From: Neolewinella persica DSM 23188 | GTDB taxonomy: Bacteria; Bacteroidota; Bacteroidia; Chitinophagales; Saprospiraceae | Length of the DNA: 64,000 bases | NCBI RefSeq assembly: GCF_000373105.1 | Contig: NZ_KB890414.1 | Coordinates: 34,447 to 98,446, forward strand | Direction: 5' to 3' | Part shown: in pieces, positions 40,508-47,632 of the stretch | Layout of the letters: each line of letters opens with the position of its first letter | Position numbering within the stretch: the stretch's first letter is position 1 | The notes under the pieces: model-generated | The model's database searches: none | Seen by the model: the letters and a program-made list of their open reading frames with translations, nothing else | What the model was told of the DNA's origin: nothing | Position numbers and translations under genes: made by a program

Positions 40508-43500
40508 CTACACCCTGCGTAAATCCAGCGTTTTTCCAAATTCCCGCGTTTCCGTCAACCGCTTAACTTCAATGGCTGGTGGTGGCGTGTAGCCTGAATT
40601 CAGGTATCGGCTGGTGGTGGTGCCCACTGCTACGGGGTCCACGATCTGTTCGGTTTGACGGGCGGAGTGATTGTATTCCCAGAAACGGTTCACTCGTCGA
40701 CTCTCCGCCTCCAGGGAATTGACCGGAAAAGTATCGTAACTGCGTCCCCCGGGATGGGTAACGTGGTAAGTACAACCGCCGATGCTGCGCTCGTTCCATT
40801 TATCGTATAAGTCAAACGTCAGCGGCACGTCCGGTTTGATGGTCGGGTGCAGGGCGGAAGGCGGATTCCAGGCTTTATAGCGGATGCCGGCTACGTATTC
40901 TCCCGTTTTCCCGGTAGCGTCAAGTGGGACCTCAACTTTATTACAGAGCAGTGCGTAGCGGTCAGGATTAAGTCCGCGCAGACGAACCTGGATCCGTTCC
41001 ACGGAGGAATCCACGTAGCGCGCCGTACCACCACTACCGAGCTCTTCGCCCAGCACGTGCCAGGGTTCGATGGCCGAACGAATCTTCAGTTCGGTCTGTT
41101 CCAGACGAATTTCTCCCAGTGCAGGAAAACGGAATTCGAGGAAGGGTTCCAACCATTCCATCTTAAAATCAAAGCCTGCTTCCTTTAAGTATAAAACTAC
41201 TTCGGCCAGGTCCTGGCGAACGTAGTGGTGCAGCAGAAAGCGGTCGTGCAGGTCAGTCCCCCAACGCACCAACGGGCGGCGGTAGGGCTTGGCCCAGAAG
41301 GCGGCGGTCAGGGCACGGATCAACAGAAGCTGGGCCAGGCACATATCCCGGTGCGGTGGCATATCAAAGCCGCGCATTTCGAGGATTCCGAGGCGGCCAG
41401 TCGGGCTGTCGGGGCTGTACAATTTATCGATACAAAACTCGGCACGGTGAGTATTTCCCGTAACGTCGATGAGGAGGTTGCGGAAAACACGGTCTACCAG
41501 CCATGCCGGCGGATTGGGGTGACGGTCCAGCTGACCGAAGGCGATTTCTAACTCATAAAGCTGATCCTGACGACCTTCATCCACGCGGGGTGCCTGACTC
41601 GTAGGACCAATAAAGGGTGAGGAAAACAGGTAGGAAAGGCCCGGATGGTTCTGCCAGAAATTCACGAAGCTGCGCAGCAGGTCGGGCCGACGGAGCAAGG
41701 GGCTTTCAGCTGGCGTAGTACCGCCAAGAGTAATGTGGTTACCACCTCCAGTGCCGGTATGCCGGCCGTCGAGCATGAATTTATTGGTTCCGAGTTTGCT
41801 TTCTTTGGCCCGTTCGAAAAGGGTGGAATAGGTACTTACGATGTCTCGCCAATTGGTGGCAGGATGCACGTTTATTTCCACTACTCCGGGGTCAGGCGTG
41901 ACCACCAGTTTAGTTAGCCGGGCGTCGTGCTTGGGTTGGTACCCCTCAATAATAACCGGTGTGTCCATGGCAGCGGCGGTCCGTTCGACGGCGGCCAGCA
42001 GGTGCACAAAGCTTTCGTTATCGTGCGGCGGCGGCAGAAAAACGTAGAGGTTGCCATCGCGTGGTTCGAGGCAAAGGGCAGTGCGAACCAGCGAGGGTTT
42101 TTCCTCCTTATTTTTCAGGGCGCGGACGCGGGTGCCGGAGGAGGTTACAGGAGCAAGTTCGGTCACATCCGGCAGCTCCGGCAAATCTTCCATAGGGCTG
42201 CTTTCAACCACGACTTTCTCCTCTTTAGGGTCCGCCTTCGGCAGCCGGTCCAGCGGTAGACGAAGACCGAGGCCGGAGTTGCCCGGCAGGAGGAAGAGGT
42301 GTTCCCGCTTAAAGTCCCAATGACTGCTGGCCCAACGGCTTTCGTCGTGGTCAAACTCCAGCGGGAGGACGTATCCTTTGGGTGTATCGAGCCCAACCTC
42401 TAGCAGCTTAGCCAGCGTTTGTCGTTCCAGTTTATCGGCGGGATCTAAGGTACGGGGGTCAACGTTGGTGGGCAGGTTACCCGTTTCCCAGAGGAAATAG
42501 AAGGTGTCTTCGTAGGCGGGCATCAGGTTTCCGGGGGGAACGACCAGTTCCTGAGCGAGCCGGCGTCCAAAGGTTTCTGCGGTTGCGGCATCCACTCCGT
42601 TATCAATGTTCGGGTCAGCAAGCAGTGCCTGGTTCAGCCACAGGGGTTTACCGTCGGTTCGCCAGTAAATGGCGTATTGCCATCGGGGGATCGGTTCGCC
42701 GGGGTACCATTTTCCCTGGCCCTGATGAATGAACCCGGCGGGTGCCAAATCACCCATTAGTTTGACGGCAAGGTCGTAGGCCAACTTGCGTTTTTCGGGC
42801 CCGTCGGCGGCTTCGTTCCACTGCTCAGACTCCATATCTTCCTCGGAGACGAAGGTTGGTTCACCCCCCATGGTAAGGCGAACGTCACCAGCCTGAAGCG
42901 CCGTTTCCACCTCATCGCCCAGGACGAGAATTTCCTCAAACTGGTTGTCGGTGTAAGGTTTAGTGACGCGGGGCGTTTCCAGGATGCGTTCAACGACGTT
43001 GCCGAAGCCGAAGGTTACTTCCGCCGGCTCGGAGAAGCCGGAAAGAGGGGCCGCACTGGCGGGTTCCGGCGTAGCGGCCAGGGGGATATGGCCTTCCCCG
43101 GCAAACAGTCCGCTGGTGGCATCAAGACCCACCCAGCCAGCACCGGGCAGGTACACTTCGGCCCATGCGTGGAGGTCGGTAAAGTCTTCGTCTGGTCCGT
43201 TGGGGCCATCAATGACTTTTTCGTCGGGCGTCAGCTGCACCAGGTAGCCGGACACAAAGCGTGCCGCCAGGCCGAGATGGCGTAGGATTTGCACGAGTAA
43301 CCAGGCGGTATCACGGCAGGATCCGTTCCTGCGTTCCAACGTAGTTTCGCAAAGTTGGACCCCTGGCTCCATCCGGATGTTGTAGTGGATATCCTGAGAT
43401 AGTGCAGTAATGAGTCCTACCAGGAAGTCGACGGTGCGTTGATTCAACAAACTTTGCACCCGCGGCCCCGCCACAAAATTCTTCAACAAGCCCCCTTCCT

Positions 43501-43864
43501 CGGTAATCTTTAGATAGGGTGCCAATTCCGCCCGTAACTGATCCTCGTATTTGAAGGGGAAGTTTTCGGCATAATCTTCCAGGAAAAAGTCAAACGGGTT
43601 GACCGTCACCATATCCGTGATCACCTCAACATCGATGCTAAGTTCACGCGTCTTTTCCGGAAAGACAACTCTGGCCTGGTAGTTACCGAAAGGGTCCTGT
43701 TGCCAGTTGATGAAATGTTCCGCCGGGCTGATCTTCAGGCTGTAACCGTGAATCGGGTTGCGCGCGTGGGGTGCAGGCCGTAAGCGAATCACCTGCGGTG
43801 ATAATTTCACTTCCCGATCGTAAGAATAACTCGTATGGTGACGTATGGCAACGCGGATAGGCAT
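40508..43864 (-). CDS. Transglutaminase-DUF2126 fusion protein
   Basis: A 1118-residue protein from the ATG at 43864 (MPIRVAIRHHTSYSYDR), the normal family start. An N-terminal beta domain (1-90) leads to a transglutaminase-like core with Cys183 (NGSCRDTAW), His232 (LHAWAEVYL) and Asp248 (LDATSG) as catalytic triad. From about 310 onwards it is DUF2126 (LTMGGEPTFVSEEDMES, then GKWYPGEPIPRW, and GTGGGNHITLGG). Published comparative genomics relates DUF2126 to glutamine-synthetase-like amidoligases. It is divergent from the ATP-grasp/alpha-E/Anbu genes. A cytosolic peptide-linking role is likely, but the substrate is unknown. Confidence 0.93.
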   Translation of the reverse strand: MPIRVAIRHHTSYSYDREVKLSPQVIRLRPAPHARNPIHGYSLKISPAEHFINWQQDPFGNYQARVVFPEKTRELSIDVEVITDMVTVNPFDFFLEDYAENFPFKYEDQLRAELAPYLKITEEGGLLKNFVAGPRVQSLLNQRTVDFLVGLITALSQDIHYNIRMEPGVQLCETTLERRNGSCRDTAWLLVQILRHLGLAARFVSGYLVQLTPDEKVIDGPNGPDEDFTDLHAWAEVYLPGAGWVGLDATSGLFAGEGHIPLAATPEPASAAPLSGFSEPAEVTFGFGNVVERILETPRVTKPYTDNQFEEILVLGDEVETALQAGDVRLTMGGEPTFVSEEDMESEQWNEAADGPEKRKLAYDLAVKLMGDLAPAGFIHQGQGKWYPGEPIPRWQYAIYWRTDGKPLWLNQALLADPNIDNGVDAATAETFGRRLAQELVVPPGNLMPAYEDTFYFLWETGNLPTNVDPRTLDPADKLERQTLAKLLEVGLDTPKGYVLPLEFDHDESRWASSHWDFKREHLFLLPGNSGLGLRLPLDRLPKADPKEEKVVVESSPMEDLPELPDVTELAPVTSSGTRVRALKNKEEKPSLVRTALCLEPRDGNLYVFLPPPHDNESFVHLLAAVERTAAAMDTPVIIEGYQPKHDARLTKLVVTPDPGVVEINVHPATNWRDIVSTYSTLFERAKESKLGTNKFMLDGRHTGTGGGNHITLGGTTPAESPLLRRPDLLRSFVNFWQNHPGLSYLFSSPFIGPTSQAPRVDEGRQDQLYELEIAFGQLDRHPNPPAWLVDRVFRNLLIDVTGNTHRAEFCIDKLYSPDSPTGRLGILEMRGFDMPPHRDMCLAQLLLIRALTAAFWAKPYRRPLVRWGTDLHDRFLLHHYVRQDLAEVVLYLKEAGFDFKMEWLEPFLEFRFPALGEIRLEQTELKIRSAIEPWHVLGEELGSGGTARYVDSSVERIQVRLRGLNPDRYALLCNKVEVPLDATGKTGEYVAGIRYKAWNPPSALHPTIKPDVPLTFDLYDKWNERSIGGCTYHVTHPGGRSYDTFPVNSLEAESRRVNRFWEYNHSARQTEQIVDPVAVGTTTSRYLNSGYTPPPAIEVKRLTETREFGKTLDLRRV
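43453..43472 (+). repeat. GC-rich 20-bp dispersed repeat, in-gene copy
   Basis: TTTGCACCCGCGGCCCCGCC, inside the transglutaminase part (encoding VAGPRVQS on the minus strand). A further diverged copy is at about 42118-42136 in the same gene, encoding GTRVRAL. Confidence 0.8.
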
Positions 43865-44158
43865 ATAAAAGTCTTCTTGGATCAAGGTTAGCAACAATGT
43901 GGCTGCTATCATATTGAACCTATCTTGGTCACACAAGTTTAGTCCGCTGCCGGTAAGTCGAACATTCTTCCAGGATTATCCTTTTACCGTGGTAGAGGTT
44001 TCTCGAAATATTTTCCTAAATAGTACACTCCCCGGAGTTTCAGGAAGCCTTTTTACGGAAGACTTTCACTATTCGAGCCGGATGTCAACTACTTTTCCTA
44101 AATTCCCACTGTATTACGGTCGATTAGCAGCTTACTCATTCTTTCACTTATTCATATC

Positions 44159-45724
44159 ATGGAGCAATCTGCAGGGCTATTTGCCAACTACGTCGTACCG
44201 GAAGGTATTCTGGACGAGTCATTTTCGGACTTCCCTTCTTCTTACGAGGGCTACGAATATGTCCGCACCGCCTTCGGTGGTCTCAGCCCGAAGGATTTCA
44301 AGCGATTGAGCGAAAGTGCTAAACTTTCCTTTCTTAATCAGGGGATTACCTACGCTGTCTATTCAGAGGAGGGTGGTGGTACCGAAAAGGTATTCCCTTT
44401 CGATCTTTTTCCCAGGGTGATCAGTAATCGGGAGTGGACCGGGCTGGAGGAAGGCCTTTTGCAGCGTAACCGAGCGCTCAATTTATTCCTTCAGGACGTT
44501 TATTCCGACCAGAAAATCCTTAAGGATAAGGTTGTCCCGGCCGACATAGTGAACAGCTCCGCTCATTACGTTAAGGCAATGGAAGGATTCAAGCCGGTGG
44601 GGAAAATATACACCCACATTTCCGGGACTGACCTGGTGCGTCATACCGACGGTAACTTTTACGTTTTAGAAGACAACCTCCGCAACCCTTCTGGCGTCAG
44701 CTACGTCCTCTCTAACCGACAGGCTATGCGGCGGACGCTCTACGAGATGTTCAACCACACCAAGGTGGAGGACGTTAGCGACTACCCGAATATGCTTCGG
44801 CGGACGTTGGCCTCCGTTTCTCCCCAAAAGGGGGAGCCGCGTTGCGTACTCCTTACCCCCGGGCAATACAACTCTGCCTATTACGAGCATAGCCTGCTGG
44901 CCCAGCGGATGGGAATTGACCTGGTGCAGGGTACCGATCTCTATGTTGACAACGATACGGTTTTCATGAAAACCATGTACGGTCCGCTAAGGGTTGACGT
45001 GATTTACCGACGTATTGACGATGCCTATCTTGATAGCGAAATGTTCCGCCCCGACAGCATGCTCGGGGTTCCCGGCGTGATGCGTGCCTACCTCAAAGGG
45101 AAGGTCAGCATCGTGAATGCACCGGGAACCGGCATTGCTGACGATAAGGCAATTTGTGCCTTTGTGCCGGATATGATCCGTTATTACCTCAAGCAGGAAC
45201 CGATCATTGAGAACGTGCAGACTTTCATCTGCAGCCGCCCCAAGGAGCTTAAATACGTACTTGAGCACCTGGCAGAACTGGTCGTCAAGCCGGTAGATAT
45301 GTCGGGAGGCTACGGCGTCATGATCTGTGACCGCCTGAGCAAGAAAGAGCTGGTGGAGCTGGCCGACCAAATCAAAGCCGACCCCCGAAACTTTATTGCA
45401 CAGCCCAAAATAATGTTGAGTACACACGGTACTTTCATCGAAGAAGAAAACGGATTCGTTCCGAGGCATATCGATCTGAGAACATTTACCCTGCTGGGTA
45501 AGGGGACCGAACAAGTCCTCAAGGGAGGGCTGACGAGGGTGGCGCTGAAAAAAGGTAGCCTTATCGTCAATTCCAGCCAGGGAGGTGGTTCCAAAGACAC
45601 TTGGGTCATCGCTTCTGATCAACCAGTAGATCAGGAACAACGTCAGGAACAAACCGGCCTCAATTCCCAGGGGCAGCGCAACTTTCAGGGTGAAACCCAC
45701 GTGACCACTCAGCAGCAGGCATGA
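44159..45724 (+). CDS. Circularly permuted ATP-grasp ligase
   Basis: A 521-residue protein of the DUF404/DUF407 type, predicted to join a carboxyl to an amine using ATP. Landmarks: FPFDLFPRVIS, then LNLFLQDVYSDQKIL, RHTDGNFYVLEDNLRNPSG, DVIYRRIDD, and VVKPVDMSGGYGVMI. The last 30 residues are Gln-rich (DQEQRQEQ, then TTQQQA), which is not part of the catalytic fold. It heads the plus-strand half of the Anbu cluster, 105 nt before the alpha-E gene. Divergent spacer of about 290 nt from the transglutaminase gene. Confidence 0.93.
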   Translation: MEQSAGLFANYVVPEGILDESFSDFPSSYEGYEYVRTAFGGLSPKDFKRLSESAKLSFLNQGITYAVYSEEGGGTEKVFPFDLFPRVISNREWTGLEEGLLQRNRALNLFLQDVYSDQKILKDKVVPADIVNSSAHYVKAMEGFKPVGKIYTHISGTDLVRHTDGNFYVLEDNLRNPSGVSYVLSNRQAMRRTLYEMFNHTKVEDVSDYPNMLRRTLASVSPQKGEPRCVLLTPGQYNSAYYEHSLLAQRMGIDLVQGTDLYVDNDTVFMKTMYGPLRVDVIYRRIDDAYLDSEMFRPDSMLGVPGVMRAYLKGKVSIVNAPGTGIADDKAICAFVPDMIRYYLKQEPIIENVQTFICSRPKELKYVLEHLAELVVKPVDMSGGYGVMICDRLSKKELVELADQIKADPRNFIAQPKIMLSTHGTFIEEENGFVPRHIDLRTFTLLGKGTEQVLKGGLTRVALKKGSLIVNSSQGGGSKDTWVIASDQPVDQEQRQEQTGLNSQGQRNFQGETHVTTQQQA

Positions 45725-45829
45725 CCTTCGTCAATCGTAGGGAAGTACTTCCGTAACGCTGTGGTCAGTCCCATTTTTTCGCCGGTGCGCTATCGGCAAC
45801 ACCTTCAAGAGAACAAATAAATTACTTCC

Positions 45830-46768
45830 ATGCTAGCCAGAATCGCCAGCTCATTATATTGGACAGGACGGTACCTAGAACGTTCCGAACATCTTGCCCG
45901 CTACCTCCGGGTACAGTACTTTTCTATGCAGGACGCTCCGATGAGCCAAAGCCGGGAATTCACGCTGAGAAGTATCCTTAACATGTACGGGGTCAAATGG
46001 ACGGAAGAGGATCCGATTGTGGAGGCTGGTGTCCTTCAGCAGGTGGCAATGGACTATGGTACGCCGCTCTCCGTTCGTTCTACCATTCGATCGGCGCGCG
46101 AAAACGCCGTTGCCCTTCGCCACGTTATTTCAACGGAGTTGTGGGAATCCATCAACGCTTACTATTTGTACAGCAATGGATTTGACACCGAGTATTTCAT
46201 TGTCCACGGCTTACATGACTATACGACCAAAGCCGGGCGTCACTGTGCCATTATCCGTTCCCGTATCGACGACACTTTATTGCAGGACGACACCTGGGTG
46301 TTGATCAAGCTGGGCATCCACCTTGAACGGGTGGTACAGGTTATTCGCATCCTGATCAGTAAACTTCGGGACATCGATGTGATGACCGATCGTGGAGCCA
46401 ACGGTCCGCTACGGCAGTACCAGGGTACCGTAATCCTTAAAATCCTGGAAGGCTTTGACATGCACCGCAAGGCCTACCACCAGCTTTTGACCGCAAAAAC
46501 AACGATTGACTTTGTGGTTGGCCACCCGCAGTTTTCCCGTTCAGTGACCTATAACATGAATGCCGTAAAGATGCTGTTGGAACGGCTGGACCATAACTCT
46601 CCCGAGAAAAACCCCGTCTTATTCAAGGCTGGAAAACTACACAGCTATTTCCGTTACCTGGAGTACGACGAGATTTCAGACGACGTTGGCGGTGCGCTCA
46701 GCGCTGCCCTTGACCGGGTTTATGCGTTGCACAGCGCGATTGAAGCCAAGTACTTCGGCGAAGTTTAA
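45830..46768 (+). CDS. Alpha-E domain protein (DUF403)
   Basis: A 312-residue all-helical protein starting MLARIASSLYWTGRYLERSEH, the hallmark of the alpha-E family. Conserved features follow (SARENAVALRHVISTELWESIN and HLERVVQVIRIL). The family nearly always occurs beside a permuted ATP-grasp protein, sometimes fused to it, and is thought to be its partner. The exact role is unknown. Confidence 0.94.
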   Translation: MLARIASSLYWTGRYLERSEHLARYLRVQYFSMQDAPMSQSREFTLRSILNMYGVKWTEEDPIVEAGVLQQVAMDYGTPLSVRSTIRSARENAVALRHVISTELWESINAYYLYSNGFDTEYFIVHGLHDYTTKAGRHCAIIRSRIDDTLLQDDTWVLIKLGIHLERVVQVIRILISKLRDIDVMTDRGANGPLRQYQGTVILKILEGFDMHRKAYHQLLTAKTTIDFVVGHPQFSRSVTYNMNAVKMLLERLDHNSPEKNPVLFKAGKLHSYFRYLEYDEISDDVGGALSAALDRVYALHSAIEAKYFGEV

Positions 46769-46852
46769 GCTGGGCATTATCAAGCTCTATTCGTTTTTTT
46801 TGCCTTTTGTTTCTGAGTGCGCCATAACTTGCCCCCTCATTAAATTTATATC

Positions 46853-47632
46853 ATGACTTATTGTCTCGGCATCAAAGTTAAAAAAGGGCTTGTTGCCATT
46901 GCAGATACCCGCATCACTTCAGGTTCAGAAACGACCTCAGCCAAGAAAATTTCCATCCATAAACAGGGAGACAACAACATCTTTCTGATGACCAGCGGAC
47001 TTCGGTCTGTACGGGACAAGGCGGTCACCTATTTTGAGGAAGTACTGGAGGAACAAGGTCAGCACTTTGACAAGATGTACAAAGCGGTCAATGCTTTCGG
47101 AGAGCAGTTAAGACGAGTGGCCAAGGAAGACAAAGAATCTCTCGCAGAATCCGGCATACCGTTCAACCTCTTTACCATCGTTGGCGGTAAATTGGAGAAA
47201 GACAGGGATCACATGCTTTTCCTCCTTTACCCTGAAGGGAACTGGATCGAAATCGGAGAGGCCACACCCTTTACCATAATCGGTAACTCCGGCTACGGAA
47301 AGCCCATCCTGAACCGGGCATTAAACTACGAATCCTCCCTCAACTTTGCCATCAAAACCGGATTCCTGTCCTTCGACAGCACCCGCGTAAGTGCCAATGA
47401 CGTAGGCTACCCCATCGATATGGTGATCTACCATAAAGACACCGGATTTATGCACGAAGCCCGGTTTGAGGAAAGTGACACGGGATACTTCGCCCAGCTC
47501 TGGGGTGAAAAACTTAAGGAATCCATTAAGGCGATTCCTGACGACTGGATCAACGACCTGGTCAGCACGGTCGAAGAGAAAGGTAAGAGTTCCCAGAAGC
47601 GGAAAGTTCAGGAGGAGCAACAGCAGCAATAG
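46853..47632 (+). CDS. Anbu, proteasome-like (HslV-related) protease subunit
   Basis: A 259-residue Ntn-hydrolase subunit of the Anbu type, beginning MTYCLGIKVKKGLVAIADTR. After Met removal the N-terminal Thr1 is the predicted nucleophile, Asp17 (ADTR) is in the canonical place, and Lys30/31 are candidates for the catalytic Lys. Characterised Anbu proteins assemble into open helical or ring-like oligomers without a known ATPase partner. The C-terminal tail is hydrophilic and ends VQEEQQQQ. Its place beside transglutaminase, ATP-grasp and alpha-E genes is the conserved Anbu gene context. Confidence 0.93.
   Translation: MTYCLGIKVKKGLVAIADTRITSGSETTSAKKISIHKQGDNNIFLMTSGLRSVRDKAVTYFEEVLEEQGQHFDKMYKAVNAFGEQLRRVAKEDKESLAESGIPFNLFTIVGGKLEKDRDHMLFLLYPEGNWIEIGEATPFTIIGNSGYGKPILNRALNYESSLNFAIKTGFLSFDSTRVSANDVGYPIDMVIYHKDTGFMHEARFEESDTGYFAQLWGEKLKESIKAIPDDWINDLVSTVEEKGKSSQKRKVQEEQQQQ

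What the first reader, a model, noticed from the sequence alone, without database searches (positions are those of the whole stretch)
40508..47632. Complete Anbu gene neighbourhood: transglutaminase-DUF2126, permuted ATP-grasp, alpha-E, proteasome-like protease
Four genes of biochemically uncharacterised but strongly co-conserved families are divergently arranged. Two are predicted amide-bond-forming enzymes (DUF2126 and ATP-grasp), one has an intact transglutaminase triad (Cys183, His232, Asp248), and one is an N-terminal-Thr protease with Thr1 and Asp17 in place. Established knowledge: comparative genomics links these families, and Anbu structures lack a known unfoldase. Inference: the cluster makes and degrades a peptide modification or a peptide product. 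The substrate remains unknown, making this the best candidate system in the window.
Basis: partly seen in the sequence, partly recalled or inferred. Interest (0 to 1): 0.75.

Follow-up and report, generated by a model that had tools for sequence, protein, structure and literature searches.

The report
Bacterial protease-ligase cluster with glutamine tails
A four-gene cluster of unknown function is really there, and its proteins, like those of its relatives, often end in runs of glutamine, the residue that transglutaminases act on, which suggests what this long-unexplained system works on.

Summary
The four genes are real and intact: TG-DUF2126 (divergent), then ATP-grasp, Alpha-E and Anbu. The organism is a Neolewinella-like member of Saprospirales.

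Two things are new here. (1) This is not the canonical Anbu operon. In other Bacteroidota a stand-alone transglutaminase commonly follows Anbu. In this clade that place is empty, and a transglutaminase fused to a putative GS-like amidoligase (DUF2126) sits divergently instead. Of 13 sampled genomes of the family, 5 have the four searched members and 8 have none.

(2) Proteins of these clusters carry glutamine-rich C-terminal tails, very rare on neighbouring ORFs. In the phylum and order samples, 45 of 50 split-type clusters without Anbu have one, on the transglutaminase or Alpha-E. Here they sit on Anbu (…QEEQQQQ) and the ATP-grasp protein. The carrier changes by lineage. Outside Bacteroidota 3 of 15 plasmid clusters pass.

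I propose that the tail is a built-in substrate or carrier for the transglutaminase; this chemistry is untested. Against: only 2 of 13 Anbu-containing clusters pass, fused-type clusters show no tail, and the threshold was set after the first tails were seen.

The parts
40508..43864 (-). [quoted passage not shown]
   Evidence: triad C183/H232/D248
43865..44158 (.). 294-bp divergent intergenic region; no sigma-54 or Bacteroidota-type promoter motif found; one sigma-70-like match in 43600-44400, as many as expected by chance
44159..45724 (+). Circularly permuted ATP-grasp protein, 521 aa
   Evidence: solved homologue 3n6x E=6.5e-145
45614..45721 (+). Glutamine-rich C-terminal tail of the ATP-grasp protein (residues 486-521, 11 Gln), past the conserved end KDTWVI
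   Evidence: ATP-grasp tails of this kind are rare among relatives (1 of 63, the window itself; also L072 and L092)
45830..46768 (+). Alpha-E protein, 312 aa, predicted all-helical; no significant match to a solved fold
46853..47632 (+). Anbu, proteasome-like Ntn-hydrolase, 259 aa; the only PF00227 match in the genome
47588..47629 (+). Glutamine-rich C-terminal tail of Anbu (...QKRKVQEEQQQQ)

Best explanation
The four genes form one cytoplasmic system that builds and breaks amide bonds at glutamine side chains. The window carries a hybrid of two layouts: the ATP-grasp/Alpha-E/Anbu core, with a transglutaminase-amidoligase fusion (TG-DUF2126) in place of the usual stand-alone transglutaminase. 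I propose that the glutamine-rich, probably disordered C-terminal tails on the cluster's own subunits (here Anbu and the ATP-grasp protein) are the Gln donors or carriers for the transglutaminase domain. That domain would deamidate or transamidate tail glutamines, the ATP-dependent ligases (ATP-grasp, DUF2126) would couple an amine or amino acid to the tail, and Anbu would hydrolyse the adduct. SHOWN: gene content, catalytic residues, all-or-none inheritance in the family sample, substitution of the transglutaminase, recurrent tails on four different proteins. INFERRED: that the tails are substrates, the order of reactions, and Anbu's role.
For: All-or-none inheritance in 13 family genomes. 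In all 6 Anbu+DUF2126 genomes of the 119-genome order sample the fusion is the only PF08379 protein; the one Anbu genome without DUF2126 has a stand-alone TG next to Anbu; the two DUF2126 genomes without Anbu have three PF08379 proteins each. In 80 Anbu loci, 20 carry DUF2126 and 33 carry a stand-alone TG downstream of Anbu, with no locus in both groups. Tails: 47 of 66 loci have 6 or more Gln in the last 30 residues of a component, against 2 of 684 and 1 of 280 flanking ORFs, the last being a cluster Alpha-E that was not masked. The rule was fixed in that script before 20 of the 66 loci (fetched) had been looked at; 13 of those 20 pass. Split-type clusters without Anbu: 45 of 50 loci, 17 of 19 genera. 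The carrier differs by lineage; an ATP-grasp tree needs 16 changes of label, 8 among tail-bearing rows. Codons are mixed CAA/CAG in 27 of 29 tails listed. Where one residue fills 7 or more of the last 20, it is Gln in 12 of 14 cluster proteins and in 0 of 10 flanking ORFs. Seven plasmid transglutaminases with no ATP-grasp or Alpha-E in the fetched stretch: 0 of 7 pass. Poly-Gln is a classic transglutaminase substrate (recalled, no call).
Against: No chemistry was tested. Anbu-containing clusters of the sample pass in only 2 of 13. In the 20 DUF2126+Anbu loci, 12 Anbus end in Gln and 2 more have an internal run, but several of these are a single Q or QQ, and L080, L085, L087, L095, L096 and L106 have no clear tail. 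Fused-type clusters (L060-L064) and the second G099 locus (L049) show no poly-Gln tail and were not part of the 66. 43 of the 96 tree rows carry no tail. Outside Bacteroidota 3 of 15 loci pass. The threshold was chosen after the first tails were seen, and 28 of the 50 loci come from one family with two genera. L085 and L106 have TG-DUF2126 and also a stand-alone TG, upstream of Anbu, so replacement is not absolute. Published Anbu showed no peptidase activity and pulled down no partner specifically (PMC6376114, passages). Tails are missing in many lineages, so they cannot be strictly required everywhere.
Confidence: 0.4

Rival explanations
1. The cluster makes a soluble peptide or amide metabolite, or modifies unrelated target proteins, and Anbu degrades it (the 2009 hypothesis repeated in the Anbu papers). 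The tails are incidental.
For: Families fit. Cluster genes are NtrC/sigma-54 dependent in Burkholderia (PMC5491218, passages), and these domains correlate with urea metabolism in marine metagenomes (PMC3597751, passages), so a nitrogen-related small product is plausible.
Against: It does not explain why Gln-rich tails recur on cluster proteins and hardly ever on flanking ORFs.
Confidence: 0.3
2. The Gln tails are assembly or interaction modules (for example poly-Gln contacts that hold the enzymes together), not substrates.
For: Tails sit on any one of four partners and switch, as expected of a docking element. Anbu's C-terminal helix is known to mediate assembly (PMC8665760 and PMC6376114, passages).
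Against: It does not explain the choice of glutamine in a cluster with a transglutaminase. No specific complex was detected for the Yersinia proteins (PMC6376114, passages), although Anbu and the transglutaminase bore C-terminal tags there.
Confidence: 0.2
3. Pup-like tagging: Anbu degrades proteins that the cluster has tagged.
For: A proteasome homologue sits beside a putative GS-like ligase. Pup itself, where encoded with a C-terminal Gln, is deamidated before ligation, by enzymes related to glutamine synthetase (PMC8599861, passages).
Against: No separate small modifier was seen: the 12 best-conserved small-ORF families across 20 Saprospirales loci lie inside or antisense to the cluster genes. 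No unfoldase gene is in the cluster. In the 148-genome sample 52 genomes have Alpha-E and only 9 have Anbu.
Confidence: 0.1
4. Nucleotide-level cause: CAA/CAG slippage or a translation-enhancing effect of CAA-rich mRNA.
For: Long Gln runs exist in a few tails (longest identical-codon run 6, L085); 2 of 29 tails use one Gln codon only.
Against: Codons are mixed in 27 of 29, many tails are QSQSQ rather than runs, tails occur on the last gene of the operon, and flanking ORFs rarely have them.
Confidence: 0.05

Closest known systems
Canonical Anbu operon (ATP-grasp, Alpha-E, transglutaminase, Anbu)
   Same: Same core families. Core order ATP-grasp > Alpha-E > Anbu is the same as in 6 genomes of the phylum sample.
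   Different: The stand-alone transglutaminase is absent and a divergently transcribed TG-DUF2126 fusion is present.
Anbu-less DUF2126 cluster (ATP-grasp and Alpha-E, split or fused, + TG-DUF2126 + TG), e.g. Enterobacter roggenkampii plasmid
   Same: TG-DUF2126 56% identical over the whole length. That locus also has split ATP-grasp and Alpha-E.
   Different: No Anbu in the stretch, an extra ATP-grasp/Alpha-E fusion, and a second transglutaminase.
Pup, Dop and PafA
   Same: GS-like enzymes act on a C-terminal Gln/Glu, in a proteasome pathway (PMC8599861, passages).
   Different: The tail here is part of the cluster's own proteins, no separate modifier was seen, and the ligase family differs.
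LysW/LysX-ArgX amino-group carrier
   Same: A RimK-like enzyme couples an amino group to the side-chain carboxyl of a protein's terminal Glu (PMC4490483, one passage).
   Different: A small carrier protein ending in Glu; that passage names no transglutaminase or Anbu.
rloABC operon of Pseudomonas aeruginosa
   Same: ATP-grasp, transglutaminase fold and protease genetically linked (PMC12239564, passages).
   Different: Inactive membrane transglutaminase, secreted aspartic protease, RimK-like ATP-grasp.

Membership tests
Anbu (proteasome-like) | Sequence relation to solved Anbu, with Thr1, Asp17 and Lys | tested here: met
Anbu (proteasome-like) | Open-ring oligomer with C-terminal helix | not testable with these tools
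   no complex prediction
Canonical four-gene Anbu operon | ATP-grasp, Alpha-E and Anbu adjacent | tested here: met
Canonical four-gene Anbu operon | Stand-alone transglutaminase in the operon | tested here: not met
   the only PF08379 match in the genome is the DUF2126 fusion; the two other Transglut_core matches are weak (about 2e-5) and lie on another contig
Transglutaminase-like superfamily | Cys-His-Asp triad | tested here: met
Transglutaminase (enzyme activity) | Gln transamidation or deamidation | not testable with these tools
   needs assay
GS-like COOH-NH2 ligase (DUF2126) | Glutamine-synthetase fold | tested here: inconclusive
   model pLDDT 62; Foldseek GmaS and GS at ranks 4 and 5, prob 0.84 and 0.95, E 0.046 and 0.066; profile search of the PDB finds two transglutaminases and two likely chance hits
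Circularly permuted ATP-grasp | CP_ATPgrasp_2 over its full length, with conserved residues | tested here: met
   (98 positions invariant in 40 sequences)
Pup-proteasome system | Separate small modifier | tested here: inconclusive
   none among the 12 best-conserved families of ORFs of 25-119 aa in 20 Saprospirales loci; elsewhere in the genome not searched
Pup-proteasome system | PafA/Dop homologues in the genome | not tested
Anti-phage defence | PADLOC model match | tested here: not met
   0 families for all four proteins at E 0.01

The most novel reading that the evidence does not exclude
Clusters of ATP-grasp, Alpha-E, transglutaminase and, in some, Anbu are self-tethered amide-chemistry systems. 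One subunit carries a glutamine-rich C-terminal tail as a substrate or carrier arm for the transglutaminase and ligases, and the arm hops between subunits in evolution. In the window's clade the arm is on Anbu, so the proteasome-like subunit is both the carrier and the releasing hydrolase.
Probability: 0.3. Interest if true: 0.87.

Novelty: new variant of a known kind. Interest (0 to 1): 0.66.

Why it matters
In the papers seen here Anbu and its operon partners have no known substrate, and recombinant Anbu showed no peptidase activity or specific partners. If the tails are the substrate, the question becomes one mass-spectrometry experiment: look at the C-terminal peptides of the operon's own proteins. 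It would also be a reason to avoid the C-terminal tags used on Anbu and the transglutaminase so far, and would add a carrier-arm logic like LysW or Pup built into the enzymes themselves. If the tails are not substrates, a strong and specific sequence pattern across Bacteroidota still needs a cause.

Tried and rejected
Sigma-54 control of this copy: no -24/-12 motif in the window's divergent region, and only loose matches in 4 of 20 regions. Not supported here, although COG3484 (Anbu) is listed among sigma-54-enriched genes of Proteobacteria (PMC12316311, passages).

Conserved small ORF as a separate peptide substrate: the 12 families shown lie inside or antisense to cluster genes. Not supported for Saprospirales.

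Alpha-E function by fold: confident model (pLDDT 92.7) but the best PDB match has E 0.24.

DUF2126 fold: the model is too poor for a firm claim. Profile search of the PDB finds transglutaminases and likely chance hits.

'Terminal Gln is required': rejected. Spirosomaceae Alpha-E tails are Gln-rich but mostly end in other residues.

'Tail is special to the hybrid clade': rejected. It is commoner in clusters without Anbu.

Simple insertion site: the same-genus genome G210 lacks the cluster but keeps TPR, RNase G, MscL and DUF4293 in the window's order. The thiolase side was not found there, so no clean empty site was shown.

Defence system: no PADLOC match.

What the 66 loci leave out: the fused ATP-grasp/Alpha-E and DUF2126 loci of G091, G126 and G137 (L060-L064), L049 of G099, G257 (cluster split over contigs) and G106 (a 48-residue ATP-grasp fragment); none of L049 and L060-L064 shows a poly-Gln tail. 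Flanking ORFs are mechanical, not curated genes, and the 280 still hold unmasked cluster proteins of L049 and L060-L065.
Full report
WHAT IS THERE. The window holds four intact genes at the stated coordinates: a transglutaminase-DUF2126 fusion on the minus strand (40508-43864) and, divergently, a circularly permuted ATP-grasp protein, Alpha-E and Anbu (44159-47632). Gaps are 294, 105 and 84 bp. The nearest Anbu relatives are Neolewinella and Lewinella (82-87%), so the organism is a Saprospirales bacterium near Neolewinella. Its genome (7.08 Mb, rated 100% complete) has no second proteasome-family gene: Anbu is the only PF00227 match.

IT IS A VARIANT OF THE KNOWN OPERON. Papers describe the Anbu operon as ATP-grasp, Alpha-E, transglutaminase and Anbu (PMC6376114 and PMC5666114, passages). 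Six genomes of the phylum sample show ATP-grasp > Alpha-E > Anbu > stand-alone transglutaminase in one direction. In this genome the only Bact_transglu_N protein is the DUF2126 fusion. Of 80 Anbu loci from genome contigs (the best 80 of 585 confirmed candidates), 20 have DUF2126 nearby, 18 of them with the divergent layout of the window, and 33 have a stand-alone transglutaminase downstream of Anbu. No locus is in both groups; 27 are in neither, some because the contig ends. Two of the 20, L085 and L106, also have a stand-alone transglutaminase upstream of Anbu. In 119 genomes of the order, six have both Anbu and DUF2126, and each has exactly one PF08379 protein, the fusion. G202 has Anbu without DUF2126 and a stand-alone transglutaminase beside it. 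G091 and G126 have DUF2126 without Anbu and three PF08379 proteins each.

IT IS INHERITED AS A UNIT. Of 13 sampled genomes of the window's family, 5 have DUF2126, Anbu, PF08379 and ATP-grasp (one match each) and 8 have none of the four, including two of the same genus. Alpha-E was not searched in the order sample. In the 148-genome phylum sample Alpha-E is present in 52 genomes, ATP-grasp in 54 over the cut-off (one a short fragment), Anbu in 9 and DUF2126 in 5. All 9 Anbu genomes have Alpha-E. By genus the figures are 21 for Alpha-E and 7 for Anbu, of 83, so Anbu looks like an optional module.

THE UNEXPECTED FEATURE: GLUTAMINE TAILS. The window's ATP-grasp protein runs 36 residues past its conserved end with 11 glutamines, and Anbu ends QEEQQQQ. 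Among 80 Anbu loci, Anbu ends in Gln in 12 of 20 with DUF2126 and 8 of 60 without. In other lineages the tail is on another subunit: Alpha-E in Spirosomaceae (QSQSQ repeats), and the transglutaminase in L085, L124 and L130 (runs of 7-9 Q). Of 55 loci with three or more components, 27 have one with at least 5 Gln in its last 20 residues; the flanking rate (1 of 684) predicts 0.3. These figures do not correct for relatedness.

GENOME SAMPLES. I then looked at the split-type cluster loci of the phylum and order samples: 66 loci. With 6 or more Gln in the last 30 residues as the rule, 47 of 66 have a tail: Alpha-E 30 of 64, transglutaminase 17 of 58, ATP-grasp 1 of 63, Anbu 1 of 13, DUF2126 0 of 6. 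Background: 2 of 684 and 1 of 280 flanking ORFs, the last being a cluster Alpha-E that had not been masked. Twenty of the 66 loci had not been looked at before the rule was written; 13 of these 20 pass, and two of the other seven hold a single component only. Loci without Anbu: 45 of 50 strict, 49 of 50 if two or more terminal Gln count, 17 of 19 genera. One of these 50, G099, has an Anbu on another contig, and 28 are one family with two genera. Loci with Anbu: 2 of 13 strict. Left out of the 66, and without poly-Gln tails: the fused ATP-grasp/Alpha-E and DUF2126 loci L060-L064 and L049.

THE CARRIER CHANGES. On a FastTree of 96 ATP-grasp proteins (tails removed; 43 rows without a tail) the carrier label needs 16 changes, 8 among tail-bearing rows; well-supported branches force at least 6 for the transglutaminase, 4 for Alpha-E, 3 for Anbu and 2 for ATP-grasp. 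Gains and losses cannot be told apart. Codons are mixed CAA/CAG in 27 of 29 tails, and many tails are not homopolymers, which argues against simple slippage. Outside Bacteroidota, 3 of 15 plasmid loci with ATP-grasp and Alpha-E pass (Azospirillum, Caballeronia, Sphingomonas), with tails just below the rule (5 Gln) in Sinorhizobium and Kozakia; flanking ORFs 0 of 90. Seven transglutaminases with no ATP-grasp or Alpha-E in the fetched stretch: 0 of 7 pass.

MECHANISM. Poly-Gln is a classic transglutaminase substrate (recalled). Pup shows that a C-terminal Gln can be deamidated and then ligated by GS-like enzymes in a proteasome pathway (PMC8599861, passages), and LysW shows a RimK-like enzyme loading the terminal Glu of a carrier (PMC4490483, one passage). 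I therefore propose that the tail is the cluster's built-in Gln donor or carrier arm. The regulation known elsewhere (NtrC/sigma-54 in Burkholderia, PMC5491218; correlation with urea genes in marine metagenomes, PMC3597751; passages) fits amide-nitrogen chemistry, but no sigma-54 motif was found here.

STRUCTURE. Alpha-E is predicted with high confidence as an all-helical protein (pLDDT 92.7) without a significant solved relative (best E 0.24). The TG-DUF2126 model is poor (62). Its transglutaminase part matches Cytophaga hutchinsonii 3isr (7e-7); GmaS and glutamine synthetase follow at prob 0.84 and 0.95 but E 0.046 and 0.066, which is weak agreement with the GS-like assignment recalled from Iyer 2009.

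LITERATURE. Iyer 2009 is not held, so whether it mentions the tails is unknown to me. The two Anbu structure papers do not mention Gln tails in the passages shown for the terms I searched. The listings show no paper whose title or displayed abstract start describes them; I read none of those papers in full.

VERDICT. The gene association is known; this copy is a new variant. The glutamine tails are the part worth following up.

Noticed in passing
L099-L102, L107-L110, L128, L143, L146, L147: Many Spirosomaceae Anbu loci have Alpha-E > Anbu (> transglutaminase) with no ATP-grasp found within about 9 kb upstream; Spirosoma and Larkinella loci show Anbu > transglutaminase only; several Cytophagales loci show Anbu alone.
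   Followed up: partly
Two transglutaminase subtypes by active-site motif: mostly G[ST]CRD downstream of Anbu or fused to DUF2126, and GVCQD in clusters without Anbu, with some loci carrying both.
   Followed up: partly
L169, L200, L203: A 'putative zinc-binding metallopeptidase' gene is annotated beside ATP-grasp/Alpha-E in Caballeronia, Kozakia and Hymenobacter plasmids.
   Followed up: no
window whole genome and G064: No HslV-type PF00227 match in either genome; Anbu is the only proteasome-fold gene found.
   Followed up: no
L083, L086, L088-L090, L092, L046, L158: A short Anbu C-terminus (ISYDQ, ISFDQ, ISLQQ, INLQQ, TNLQQ) recurs after a variable linker in several Saprospirales; L091 has GHEQ.
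   Followed up: partly
window 40508-43864, residues 475-602 of TG-DUF2126: Three yeast-type acetolactate synthase chains match this stretch at about 5e-4; not seen again with the 16-sequence profile, so probably chance.
   Followed up: partly
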